From NCBI GenBank assembly GCA_022567555.1, contig JADFGT010000012.1:1-44151 (forward strand): a stretch of 44,151 nt of DNA, read 5' to 3'. This document shows positions 8,085 to 10,448 of this stretch, piece by piece. The notes beneath the pieces are model-generated. The model was not told the DNA's origin. It searched no databases and saw only the letters and a program-made list of their open reading frames with translations. The translations under genes were made by a program, and so were the position numbers. How positions within the stretch are numbered: position 1 is the first letter of the stretch; each line of letters opens with the position of its first letter. This DNA comes from Armatimonadota bacterium (GTDB taxonomy: Bacteria; Armatimonadota; Fimbriimonadia; Fimbriimonadales; ATM1).

Positions 8085-8699
8085 CTACGCGCCTTCCGCC
8101 AGTATTATCTTCAGCGCCTCTTCGGCCTCTTTCGGCTTGAACCCCATGGGCCCCCGGCCGCTCTTGTACGCTACCTTACCGTCCTTGCCGATTATGTATA
8201 TCCGGTCGGGCCAGCCGTGATAGGCGAGTTCCACGGTGTTTTCCATGTTGTCAATCACGGTGGGAATAGAGATCTTGAGGTTTGCGACGCACACGCCGGC
8301 TACCGCCTGCCGCTCCTCAGCGGTCGTCGGGTCCGCGACGATTATGCCTTCCCGGTCATTTCCTCTTGTTCTCCAGCCATCGGTCGGGTGCGCCTCTTTG
8401 ATGTAGACTATTTTGAAGTCCACCGTGTTCTTGTATTCCTTGTACATTCTTTCGAGTTCGCCAACCTGGCGACGGAAGGGCGGTCACGTGTAACTGCCGA
8501 AGATGAGCAACGTCGGCCGCTTGCCGAAGTTGTCGCTCAACGTGAACTTCTTTTCGGTGTGCAGAATTGTCAGGCTGAAATCCGGGGCTTTGTCGCCCTC
8601 TTTGAGGTTGTCTGGGGTCCGCTGGGGTCGCTGGGCCGCGAGCGGCGCCAGCAGCGCTAGGCCCGCCAGGCCCGTCAGGAGCAGAGTGAGCGTTCTCAT
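8085..8699 (-). CDS. Iodothyronine-deiodinase-like selenoprotein (thioredoxin fold), Sec at residue 72
   Basis: Read through one in-frame TGA (8486-8484), the minus strand encodes 204 aa. Residues 1-22 form a signal peptide or anchor (MRTLTLLLTGLAGLALLAPL). A redoxin domain begins at GDKAPDFSL. The active site reads FGSYT-Sec-PPF, and residues 99-109 read YIKEAHPTDGW. Both match the iodothyronine deiodinase family (FGSCT-Sec-PPF and YIEEAH..DGW), as does the later PDRIYIIGKDGKVAYKSGRGP. A SECIS-like hairpin follows the TGA. The product is probably a periplasmic thiol/selenol oxidoreductase or reductive dehalogenase-like enzyme; its natural substrate is unknown. C158 or thereabouts (GVCVAN) might be a resolving thiol. 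ATG 8699 is preferred, with TATATG 5 nt upstream; a start at 8747 is possible. Confidence 0.88.
8458..8486 (-). promoter_or_regulatory. Bacterial SECIS element directly 3' of the Sec UGA
   Basis: On the minus strand, UGA (8486-8484) is followed 11 nt later by UCGCCA (8472-8467), the loop GGU (8466-8464) and UGGCGA (8463-8458), a perfect 6-bp stem. The GGU begins 17 nt after the UGA. In the known E. coli fdhF SECIS a GGU apical loop lies 18 nt after the UGA. A few lower pairs (UUC at 8477-8475 with GAA at 8453-8451) could extend the stem. SelB binding is the expected function. Confidence 0.8.
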
Positions 8700-8758
8700 G
8701 ACTCCATATACGCAGAAACGGGCCGAAAGTTCTCCCGCATGATGCAAACGGGTCCCCT

Positions 8759-8899
8759 TCAGTTGGTGGGCAATTCGTCCCCCGTGACTGCGCGGCCGTT
8801 CGGGAGGTGCGGAACAGAAATACTGGCCCTATCTTCCGATGCGCGCAGCACGTCTGTCCAACTCGCGCTCAACCATCCGGACACGCGATCAATATCCAT
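8759..8899 (-). CDS. Possible small hypothetical protein (low support)
   Basis: An ATG at 8899 opens a 46-codon frame (MDIDRVSGWLSASWTD... ending DELPTN) with reasonable amino-acid composition. It finishes 60 bp before the selenoprotein start on the same strand. No ribosome binding site is evident and I recognise no family. The 243-bp gap 8748-8990 otherwise holds only the hslU promoter, so this could equally be non-coding. Confidence 0.25.
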   Translation of the reverse strand: MDIDRVSGWLSASWTDVLRASEDRASISVPHLPNGRAVTGDELPTN

Positions 8900-8973
8900 A
8901 TTGCCGGGCAAGTATCTGGCGAGTACAAGATAGAGGGTTTCGTCACGGAGGCCGGAGGTTCGTGCCGCACGGG

Positions 8974-8979
8974 TAGAAT
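8974..8979 (+). promoter_or_regulatory. -10 element TAGAAT for hslU
   Basis: TAGAAT ends 11 nt before the hslU ATG, which predicts a leader of only about five nucleotides. No Shine-Dalgarno sequence is visible in that space. Confidence 0.4.
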
Positions 8980-8990
8980 CGGTCTGAGAA

Positions 8991-10448
8991 ATGGATCTGC
9001 CCATCGAGGAACTCACTCCGCGCCAGATCGTAGCCGAACTGGACCGCTACATCGTCGGTCAGGAGAATGCGAAGCGCGCCGTCGCCATCGCCATGCGCAA
9101 CAGGTTTCGGCGCCAGCGTCTGCCCGCCGACCAGCGGGAAGACATCATGCCGAAGAACATCTTGATGATCGGGCCGACCGGCGTGGGAAAAACGGAGATC
9201 GCCCGGCGTCTGGCCCAGCTGGCGAAGGCGCCGTTCATAAAGGTGGAGGCCACCAAGTTCACGGAGATCGGCTATGTGGGCCGCGACGTGGACAGCATGA
9301 TCCGAGACCTGGTAAGCGTGGCCGTACGCCTGGTTGAAAAAGAAAAGATCGAGGAGGTTCGCCCGAAGGCCGAAGCGCGCGCGACTGACCGCATAACCGA
9401 CATCCTTATGCCGCACCCCCGCGAGGCACCGCGCCCGGAGATGAGCGCGCACCCGCTGTTCCAGGCCTTCGAGCGAATCGCGGGCGAGCCCGCGCAGTCC
9501 GGCCAGCCCGGGCAGGCGTCAACCGAGCAGGATGGCGAAGAGGAGAGATTGAAGGCCGAAGAGGCCATCGAGCGCCAACGGGCGAAGCTGCGGACCCAGG
9601 TGGAGGCCGGCGCGCGCGACGACGACGTGATCGAGGTCGAGGTTGAAGAGGCCCAGACACCGTTCCTACAAGTGTTCACGCCGCAGGGAATGGAGGAGAT
9701 GGGACTCGACCTGTCCACTCAGCTCAGCCAGGCGTTTGGTAAACATCAGGCCACACGGCGCGTTACAGTCGCCGAAGCGAAGGCCCTCCTGACCGAAGAG
9801 GAGGCCCGAAAAATGATTGACCAGACCTCTATGACCAAAGAGGCGATTGAGCGGACGGAACAGACAGGCCTCATCTTTCTGGACGAGATAGATAAAATCG
9901 CCGGACGTGAAGGCGGCGCAGGGCCGGACGTTTCGAGAGAGGGAGTGCAGCGCGACCTTCTGCCGATTATCGAAGGTTCAACCGTAATCACGAAGTATGG
10001 GCCGGTCACCACGGACCATATCCTTTTCATCGGCGCCGGTGCGTTCAACGTAAGCAAACCGAGCGATCTCGTGCCGGAACTTCAAGGGCGATTGCCGATC
10101 CGCGTGGAACTTACCGACTTGGGCGAGTCCGACCTGCGGCGAATCTTGAAAGAACCGAAGAACGCGCTGACCAAGCAGTATGTGCAACTGATGATGACTG
10201 AAGGCGTCAGTCTGGAGTTCACAGAAGACTCGATTGACGAGATCGCACGAATGGCGCATGAGGTGAACACGAAAACGGAGAACATCGGCGCGCGCAGGCT
10301 TCATACTGTGATGGAGAAACTGCTTGAAGACATCATGTTCGACGCGCCGGACGTGGGACCGCACAGAATCGTTATTGACGCTGAGTTTGTCCAAAACAAA
10401 CTTTCGGACCTCGTTGAAGACACCGACCTTTCGAAATACATCTTGTGA
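8991..10448 (+). CDS. hslU: ATP-dependent protease ATPase subunit HslU (ClpY)
   Basis: HslU is the hexameric AAA+ unfoldase that feeds proteins into the HslV peptidase. The 485-aa sequence has the N-terminal [17 protein letters not shown] signature, Walker [10 protein letters not shown], the I-domain insert (about residues 110-240), Walker [12 protein letters not shown], sensor segments near [15 protein letters not shown] and the C-terminal tail DTDLSKYIL, whose last residues insert into HslV. hslV usually lies directly upstream in an operon. Here upstream is the divergent selenoprotein gene and no hslV is visible in the window. The gene is followed 16 bp later by the hydantoinase gene, probably co-transcribed. 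Confidence 0.96.

What the first reader, a model, noticed from the sequence alone, without database searches (positions are those of the whole stretch)
8085..8699. Bacterial iodothyronine-deiodinase-like selenoprotein with a matching SECIS hairpin
Seen: two half-frames join in the same reading frame across a single TGA at the exact place where deiodinases have Sec (FGSYT-Sec-PPF). The next conserved block YIKEAHPTDGW follows, and a perfect 6-bp stem with loop GGU begins 11 nt later, at the same spacing as in E. coli fdhF. Known: vertebrate deiodinases are selenoproteins; prokaryotic deiodinase-like sequences are rare and of unknown role. Here Tyr replaces the Cys two residues before Sec, and a signal peptide suggests a periplasmic place. 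Ordinary annotation would split this into two fragments or call it a pseudogene.
Basis: partly seen in the sequence, partly recalled or inferred. Interest (0 to 1): 0.92.

Follow-up and report, generated by a model that had tools for sequence, protein, structure and literature searches.

The report
Bacterial selenium enzyme resembling thyroid deiodinase
A gene that looks broken by a stop signal is very probably an intact gene for a bacterial enzyme that carries selenium and is related to the enzymes that activate thyroid hormone; such bacterial relatives were already known, but what they do was not, and gene-neighbour evidence now suggests a redox partner.

Summary
The protein matches Pfam T4_deiodinase (3.6e-34); its predicted fold (pLDDT 90) is closest to mouse Dio2 and Dio3. 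The genome encodes tRNA-Sec, SelA, SelB and a SelD that itself holds an in-frame TGA. Of 50 homologues, 34 have TGA at this codon and 16 a Cys codon. The stretch 8-30 nt after the codon folds more stably than synonymous recodings in TGA copies (mean z -1.79), not in Cys copies (-0.10); the window copy alone is not significant (p 0.16). Of 201 genomes drawn from the phylum, 16 of 16 with a TGA copy have SelA. Bacterial Sec deiodinase-like proteins are in print since 2005: a new member of a known kind. Not found in the papers searched: AhpD-like genes or domains, many with TGA in CxxU, lie beside or are fused to deiodinase-like genes (23 of 95 matches in 28 genomes fall in 0.15% of the DNA). I propose an exported selenol redox enzyme with Cys137 as resolving thiol, perhaps recycled by an AhpD-like partner. 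Activity is untested.

The parts
8085..8699 (-). Deiodinase-like selenoprotein gene, 204 codons plus TAG, ATG start at 8699
8484..8486 (-). In-frame TGA, codon 72, read as selenocysteine
   Evidence: TGA at this codon in 34 of 50 homologues, Cys codon in the other 16
8458..8472 (-). SECIS-like apical hairpin, 6-bp stem TCGCCA/TGGCGA, loop GGT, beginning 11 nt after the TGA
8634..8699 (-). Probable signal peptide, residues 1-22 (MRTLTLLLTGLAGLALLAPLAA)
   Evidence: by eye; low pLDDT in residues 1-30; no signal-peptide program run
8702..8705 (-). GGAG, a possible but very close ribosome-binding site (2 nt before ATG)
   Evidence: by eye
8373..8396 (-). EAHPTDGW block, residues 102-109 (deiodinase omega-loop / proton-relay residues E102, H104)
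   Evidence: E102 and H104 invariant in 49 of 49 aligned homologues
8289..8291 (-). Codon of Cys137, proposed resolving thiol
   Evidence: Cys in 31 of 34 Sec copies; the other three have Cys138 (2) or Cys70 (1)

Best explanation
The gene encodes a probably exported, thioredoxin-fold selenoenzyme of the deiodinase superfamily. Strongly supported by sequence: the UGA at codon 72 is decoded as Sec by the genome's own SelA/SelB/SelD/tRNA-Sec with the hairpin just downstream as SECIS (my probability 0.95); the domain belongs to PF00837 and has the Dio2/Dio3 fold (0.97). Inferred: the Sec72 selenolate reduces an oxidised or polarised substrate (a hydroperoxide, a disulfide, or a C-halogen bond), Cys137 closes a selenenyl-sulfide with it, and a thiol partner reduces that bond. 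Gene neighbourhood and fusion point to AhpD-like CxxU/CxxC proteins as that partner in several lineages (0.4). That it is a redox enzyme of this kind at all: 0.75. That its natural reaction is deiodination of thyronines: under 0.05.
For: Family: Pfam T4_deiodinase 3.6e-34; phmmer to mouse Dio3 6.5e-24 and Dio2 3.8e-22; AlphaFold model pLDDT 90, pTM 0.82, best PDB matches Dio2 and Dio3 (E 4e-14, TM 0.70-0.80), then DsbE- and ResA-like oxidoreductases. Sec: tRNA-Sec with anticodon tca, SelA (13), SelB (18), SelD with TGA (19, 35). 16 of 16 genomes with a TGA copy have full SelA against 97 of the other 185 in the same draw; 0 of 3 genomes with only a Cys copy have it. SelD over cut-off in 8 of 8 TGA genomes tested, 0 of 3 Cys genomes. 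Hairpin. Second thiol: Cys137, 138 or 70 in 34 of 34 Sec copies. Partner: of 95 AhpD-like matches in 28 whole genomes (about 181 Mb), 23 lie in the 29 deiodinase loci searched (0.27 Mb), in 14 of the 29 (contigs paired by coordinates); 0 matches in 40 control regions. Fusions: L030, L035, L043, L045, L048. The window's genome has two AhpD-like proteins with TGA in CxxU on other contigs.
Against: The window gene has no AhpD-like neighbour, and only 3 of 16 own-phylum neighbourhoods do, all in one genus, so the partner is extrapolated from relatives. CMD-family proteins with an in-frame TGA were found in only 8 of 13 TGA-deiodinase genomes. The window hairpin alone is not significant (p 0.16). 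5 of 34 TGA copies fall short of -6.5 kcal/mol, a cut chosen after seeing the data, and at least two that pass do so with a hairpin further downstream. In the pair count, the number of pairs with changes on both sides (4) is no more than shuffles give (3.8; 344 of 500), and sliding the partner by +1 gives as many double changes (26) and covariation 0.217 against 0.260. Sec/Cys changed state only about 3 times on the tree, too few for a phylogenetic test. The Sec72-Cys137 distance could not be measured (no coordinates given).
Confidence: 0.65

Rival explanations
1. It is a true reductive dehalogenase: the enzyme removes iodine (or bromine) from halogenated phenols or other organohalides in the environment by the deiodinase half-reaction.
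For: The deiodinase fold is the closest. Five of the six proton-relay residues named for Dio2 (Ser127, Thr129, Tyr157, Glu160, His162; PMC11592359, passages) are present as S69, T71, Y99, E102, H104; Y99, E102, H104 are invariant in 49 of 49.
Against: Dio2-His182 aligns with Pro124 in the window (His in 11 of 34 Sec copies) and the distal Cys with Ile145 (alignment). No dehalogenation gene was recognised among the window neighbours annotated.
Confidence: 0.2
2. A periplasmic ResA/TlpA-like thiol-disulfide reductase or peroxiredoxin that happens to carry Sec; nothing deiodinase-specific remains in its chemistry.
For: Secondary matches to Redoxin and AhpC-TSA and to DsbE- and ResA-like structures; apparent export signal; second conserved Cys.
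Against: No CxxC or UxxC at the active site (Phe or Tyr at +3 in the 49 aligned homologues); the EAHPxDGW loop that it shares with deiodinases is nearly invariant.
Confidence: 0.3
3. Pseudogene, sequencing error, or a genome in which TGA is reassigned.
For: One in-frame stop in an otherwise open gene.
Against: Same TGA in 34 of 50 homologues in Planctomycetota, Verrucomicrobiota and the own phylum; TGA used as stop in neighbouring genes; full Sec machinery.
Confidence: 0.01

Closest known systems
Prokaryotic deiodinase-like selenoprotein family (Pfam PF00837; Sargasso Sea 2005, GOS 2008)
   Same: Sec and Cys forms in bacteria, bacterial SECIS, unknown function (PMC1088965, PMC2398784, passages)
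   Different: Two reviews list the motif as UxxC (PMC9312934, PMC13188914, table passages; the 2008 paper lists none); here it is U-P-P-F, in most relatives U-P-P-F or U-G-P-F/Y, with no Cys at +3 in the homologues aligned
Vertebrate iodothyronine deiodinases Dio2/Dio3 (9h48, 4tr3)
   Same: 31% identity in the structural alignment, Sec at the same site, S/T/Y/E/H relay residues, PPF after Sec, EAHPxDGW loop
   Different: Probable signal peptide; Tyr at the proximal-Cys site (Ala in mouse Dio2); distal Cys replaced by Ile145, with a different Cys at 137; His182 (Dio2) replaced by Pro124; SECIS-like hairpin inside the coding sequence
NCBIfam NF038285 'deiodinase family protein'
   Same: Best NCBIfam match, 2.4e-63, to its C-terminal part
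   Different: Below cut-off (214.7 of 250 bits): the match covers model positions 179-346 only. Whether the EF-hand-bearing planctomycetal relatives meet it was not tested
ResA / TlpA / DsbE thiol-disulfide oxidoreductases
   Same: Thioredoxin fold, next best structures
   Different: CxxC active site absent

Membership tests
Bacterial selenoprotein | In-frame UGA at a position that is Sec or Cys in homologues | tested here: met
   34 TGA, 16 Cys of 50 homologues
Bacterial selenoprotein | SECIS hairpin shortly after UGA with G in the apical loop | tested here: met
   6 bp, loop GGT, 11 nt after UGA; family-level signal only in TGA copies; window alone p 0.16; no Rfam match in the window
Bacterial selenoprotein | SelA, SelB, SelD and tRNA-Sec in the same genome | tested here: met
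Bacterial selenoprotein | Selenium incorporated in the protein | not testable with these tools
   needs 75Se labelling or mass spectrometry
Deiodinase superfamily PF00837 | Match to the family profile above cut-off | tested here: met
   118.6 bits against 27
Deiodinase superfamily PF00837 | Deiodinase fold | tested here: met
   Dio2 and Dio3 are ranks 1 and 2 of 1554 PDB matches with E up to 10
Vertebrate iodothyronine deiodinase | Proton-relay residues Ser, Thr, Tyr, Glu, His, His | tested here: inconclusive
   five of six present; the sixth (Dio2-His182) is Pro124
Vertebrate iodothyronine deiodinase | Distal Cys (Dio2 Cys205) | tested here: not met
   aligns with Ile145; the conserved Cys is at 137
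Vertebrate iodothyronine deiodinase | Deiodination of iodothyronines | not testable with these tools
   no assay; not claimed
Prokaryotic deiodinase-like family as listed in reviews | UxxC motif | tested here: not met
   residue +3 is Phe (45) or Tyr (4) in 49 homologues and Phe in the window
NF038285 deiodinase_rel | Curated cut-off 250 bits | tested here: not met
   214.7 bits, C-terminal part only

The most novel reading that the evidence does not exclude
Bacterial deiodinase-like and AhpD-like selenoproteins form one redox module: the deiodinase-like Sec meets the substrate, an AhpD-like CxxU recycles it, and in some Planctomycetota both sit in one EF-hand-bearing polypeptide with two selenocysteines. 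Vertebrate deiodinases would then share ancestry with an exported selenol redox enzyme that had its own selenium-containing reductase.
Probability: 0.3. Interest if true: 0.75.

Novelty: new member of a known kind. Interest (0 to 1): 0.5.

Why it matters
A 2005 paper left the function of bacterial deiodinase-like selenoproteins open, and a 2026 review still counts them among proteins of largely unknown function (passages). This gene is a short single-domain example with a clear hairpin. The Cys137 pattern and the AhpD-like link give two concrete, testable hypotheses on mechanism, and on the chemistry from which thyroid-hormone deiodinases may have arisen. It also shows how gene callers can hide such genes: the window gene is split in two by a plain ORF list, and the double-TGA fusions would be cut short.

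Tried and rejected
Sequencing error, pseudogene and code reassignment: rejected. Rfam at gathering threshold found nothing in the window. Conserved neighbours of the window gene: hslU and hydantoinase B are shared by 3 of 4 loci of its family and gyrB by 2 (one of these contigs is only 3.5 kb), which reads as vertical synteny. The same script showed a few other shared ORFs between loci (one set in 4 loci, several in pairs of close relatives) that I did not identify. I first read the invariant Pro164 as setting bacterial proteins apart from deiodinases; Dio1 has Pro there too (PMC11592359, passages), so I dropped it. I first took the Pfam CMD match in the fusions to be the part with the second TGA; it is not (L030 residues 466-521, TGA at residue 727), and the part around the TGA is matched by my own AhpD-like profiles. 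My first control for the AhpD link (40 regions of 20 kb or less, chosen by me, from 21 genomes, only four of which hold a locus with an AhpD-like match) was poorly matched, so I added a whole-genome count. Taxonomy: no tool names the genome. GyrB is 52-56% identical to three other genomes of its phylum and at most 51% to seven named Planctomycetota and Verrucomicrobiota genomes, a weak sign that the phylum is a third one. A second structural aligner was not available.

Rows dropped before the 50-homologue counts: matches with E above 1e-10 (L026, L027, a TGG fragment in L042); loci from below the Pfam cut-off without a tblastn match (L066-L069, L072); copies identical over codon plus 48 nt (L025 equals L024; overlapping loci L055, L070, L071). 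The window itself is among the 34 as L020, and three rows are tandem copies of one genome. Counts leave out the window and L020 (49 rows). Alignment A3 for the structure holds 46 sequences, the window among them.

Full report
What is there. On the minus strand, 8699 to 8085 is a 204-codon frame (ATG to TAG) with one in-frame TGA at codon 72, in the context FGSYT-U-PPF. A mechanical ORF list splits the gene into 8085-8447 and 8484-8747. With the TGA read as a residue, the protein matches Pfam T4_deiodinase at 3.6e-34, the C-terminal part of NCBIfam NF038285 at 2.4e-63 but below its cut-off, and mouse Dio3 and Dio2 in the PDB at 6.5e-24 and 3.8e-22. A model built on 46 sequences has mean pLDDT 90; its two best PDB matches are the catalytic cores of Dio2 and Dio3 (E about 4e-14), followed by DsbE- and ResA-type oxidoreductases. 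Residues 1-22 look like a signal peptide by eye.

Is the TGA selenocysteine? The genome (2.95 Mb, 179 contigs, 91.5% complete) has tRNA-Sec with anticodon tca (the next four Rfam matches over cut-off are ordinary tRNA-Leu and tRNA-Ser), SelA, SelB over cut-off and SelD over cut-off, itself with one in-frame TGA. TGA ends three of nine neighbouring genes examined and is internal in none, so the code is not reassigned. In 41 genomes (own and relatives), 8 have a PF00837 match over the cut-off and all 8 hold one TGA; one match also spans a TAA, upstream of the start chosen for that gene. In 201 genomes drawn from the phylum (completeness 90 or more asked for), 19 have a match over cut-off: 16 with TGA, 3 with no stop. 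All 16 have a full SelA; of the other 185 genomes, 97 do (113 genomes in all with E of 4e-62 or better; five with only weak matches not counted); the 3 genomes with Cys copies have none. These genomes are related, so the counts are not independent. SelD is over cut-off in 8 of 8 TGA genomes and 0 of 3 Cys genomes tested. A scan of named genomes gave 26 loci, 24 of Planctomycetota and 2 of Verrucomicrobiota. Of seven of these genomes tested for tRNA-Sec, six have a match over cut-off and the seventh (G043, Cys copy) has none; two with a Cys copy (G044, G045) do have one. Together, 50 distinct homologues with E of 1e-10 or better have TGA (34) or TGC/TGT (16) at this codon.

The hairpin. After the TGA come 11 nt, then TCGCCA-GGT-TGGCGA (8472-8458). 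To separate RNA structure from coding I recoded each homologue 1000 times with synonymous codons (codon use pooled from these regions) and folded nt 8-30 after the codon. TGA copies: mean z -1.79, 19 of 34 at p 0.05 or less, combined p 2e-18 (copies taken as independent, which they are not). Cys copies: mean z -0.10, 0 of 16. Sliding the 22-nt window, the mean z of TGA copies is -1.45 to -1.76 at offsets 6-10 and near zero or above from 14 on; in Cys copies it never passes -0.64. The window copy alone gives z -1.07, p 0.16. On an alignment of 34 TGA copies the 7-pair helix has 71% of cells paired (shuffled mean 61%), 26 cells with changes on both sides (shuffled 13) and covariation 0.26 (shuffled 0.12); against it, the number of pairs with double changes (4) is about the shuffled mean (3.8), and sliding the partner by one column gives 54-55% paired and, at +1, as many double changes (26) and covariation 0.217; loop length varies between copies, which may explain the last. 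With a cut of -6.5 kcal/mol, chosen afterwards, 29 of 34 TGA and 0 of 16 Cys copies have a hairpin. Copies of one family (L058-L062) lack it at the usual place and fold a little further downstream; two of them pass the cut that way. Cys and Sec forms changed about three times on the tree, so the independent contrast has only 3 pairs and cannot reach significance.

Active site. In 49 aligned homologues R76, Y99, E102, H104, R130, D150 and P164 are among the invariant residues. The proton relay proposed for deiodinases (Dio2 Ser127, Thr129, Tyr157, Glu160, His162, His182; PMC11592359, passages) is present except the last, which aligns with Pro124; 11 of 34 Sec copies have His there. Residue 69 is Ser in 34 of 34 Sec copies and Asn in 12 of 16 Cys copies. 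The proximal-Cys position is Tyr70 here; the distal Cys (Dio2 Cys205) aligns with Ile145. Instead Cys137 is present in 31 of 34 Sec copies; the other three have Cys138 (L029, L034) or Cys70 (L054), so every Sec copy has a second thiol at one of three places; 12 of 16 Cys copies have Cys137. None of the aligned homologues has Cys at +3, although reviews list the family as UxxC.

Company it keeps. In five of five planctomycetal proteins scanned whole and in four scanned with the second TGA read (one of them again) the domain follows EF-hand matches, which are below cut-off in L030 and L045. In L030, L045 and L048 (Sec in the deiodinase domain) and L035 (Cys there) the frame ends at ...CFY-TGA and goes on with MGH; a 6- to 7-bp hairpin follows that TGA in all four, without a control. 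Pfam CMD matches a part upstream of that TGA (over cut-off in L030 and L045, below it in L048 and L035); my AhpD-like profiles match the part around the TGA in L030, L045 and L048, not in L035. L043 (Cys) has a CMD match over cut-off after its deiodinase domain. CxxU is the motif listed for AhpD-like selenoproteins (PMC1088965, passages). L063 of the own phylum (Cys) is fused to a BD-FAE hydrolase.

The AhpD link was tested twice. A profile from two AhpD-like proteins found independently of neighbourhood (L094, L098) matched 25 times, 19 of them with a CxxC or CxxU and 12 with TGA, in 416,800 bases of deiodinase loci: 16 of 42 loci (13 of 26 named, 3 of 16 own-phylum), some matches weak (domain E up to 0.03). 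It matched 0 times in 743,618 bases, 40 control regions of 21 genomes. A profile from six such proteins (L093-L098) gave, at 21 bits, 19 matches in 13 of 42 loci, 11 with TGA, and 0 in the controls. Searched in 28 whole genomes (25 that hold the 26 named loci, and three of the own phylum, G154, G162, G166, picked because they had a match), it found 95 matches in about 181 Mb (rounded sizes). By coordinates, 23 of the 95 lie in the 29 deiodinase loci of these genomes (268,929 bases, 0.15% of the DNA; about 0.14 expected), spread over 14 of the 29 loci; contig identity was inferred from agreeing positions, five of the 23 belong to one locus (L042), and several are fused to the deiodinase gene itself. 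The 26 named loci were fetched by the deiodinase protein alone, so they are not picked for this link.

The window gene has no such neighbour. Its genome has two AhpD-like proteins with TGA in CxxU (CHYU, CEYU) on other contigs. A CMD match with one TGA is present in 8 of 13 TGA-deiodinase genomes and 0 of 3 Cys genomes; I looked at the motif in five of the eight, and it is CxYU in each.

Mechanism proposed. Supported: family, fold, Sec decoding context. Inferred: export; Sec72 as catalytic selenolate; Cys137 as resolving thiol; recycling by AhpD-like or another thiol protein. The substrate is open: peroxide, disulfide or organohalide. Thyronine deiodination is improbable in a bacterium and not claimed.

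Novelty. Sec and Cys deiodinase-like proteins with bacterial SECIS were reported in 2005 (4 Sec, 6 Cys; PMC1088965) and 2008 (22 Sec, 21 Cys; PMC2398784), and are in reviews of 2022 (PMC9312934) and 2026 (PMC13188914); of all these I read passages, not whole texts or supplements. So the gene is a new member of a known kind. The link to AhpD-like proteins and the double-TGA fusion were not in those passages; the searches for deiodinase with AhpD, bacterial deiodinase (27), deiodinase-like with selenoprotein (88), and deiodinase with Planctomycetes or Planctomycetota (47, 84) gave listings in which no title or abstract start speaks of it. The 2026 review does list another fusion, arsenite methyltransferase with AhpD, and operons of Prx-like with AhpD-like genes, so the principle has precedent.

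Noticed in passing
L030:4284-6821, L045:4164-6821, L048:4329-6794 (+): Planctomycetal genes with two in-frame TGA: EF-hand, deiodinase-like domain (U-G-P-F/Y) and an AhpD-like part (C-F-Y-U); L035 has Cys in the first and TGA in the second.
   Followed up: partly
L030, L032, L033, L035, L036, L041-L043, L045, L048, L052, L084, L085, L088 (also L031, L038 with the first profile): AhpD-like CxxU/CxxC genes or domains within a few kb of the deiodinase-like gene, far more often than their genome-wide density gives.
   Followed up: yes
genome G225, contig C195, 4645-23643 (L042 lies in it, by coordinates): A cluster of nine AhpD-like matches around a Cys-form deiodinase-like gene in an Isosphaeraceae genome.
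   Followed up: no
L071, genome G212 contig C134 3160-4939: Three deiodinase-like genes in tandem, each with its own TGA.
   Followed up: no
L093, L094 (window genome, contigs C21 and C46): Two AhpD-like proteins with TGA in CxxU; with SelD and the window gene the genome has at least four predicted selenoproteins.
   Followed up: partly
L063, L064, L065: Cys-form deiodinase-like proteins of 489-550 aa in genomes without SelA; L063 is fused to a BD-FAE hydrolase domain, the other two were not scanned.
   Followed up: no
residue 69 of the alignment: Ser three residues before the active site in all 34 Sec copies, Asn in 12 of 16 Cys copies: a neighbour that changes with Sec/Cys.
   Followed up: no
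L058-L062: TGA copies of one family lack the hairpin at the usual place and may have moved it some nucleotides downstream.
   Followed up: partly
window 8700-8990: The gene is divergent from hslU (8991-10448); hslU also lies next to it in two of the three other loci of its family.
   Followed up: partly
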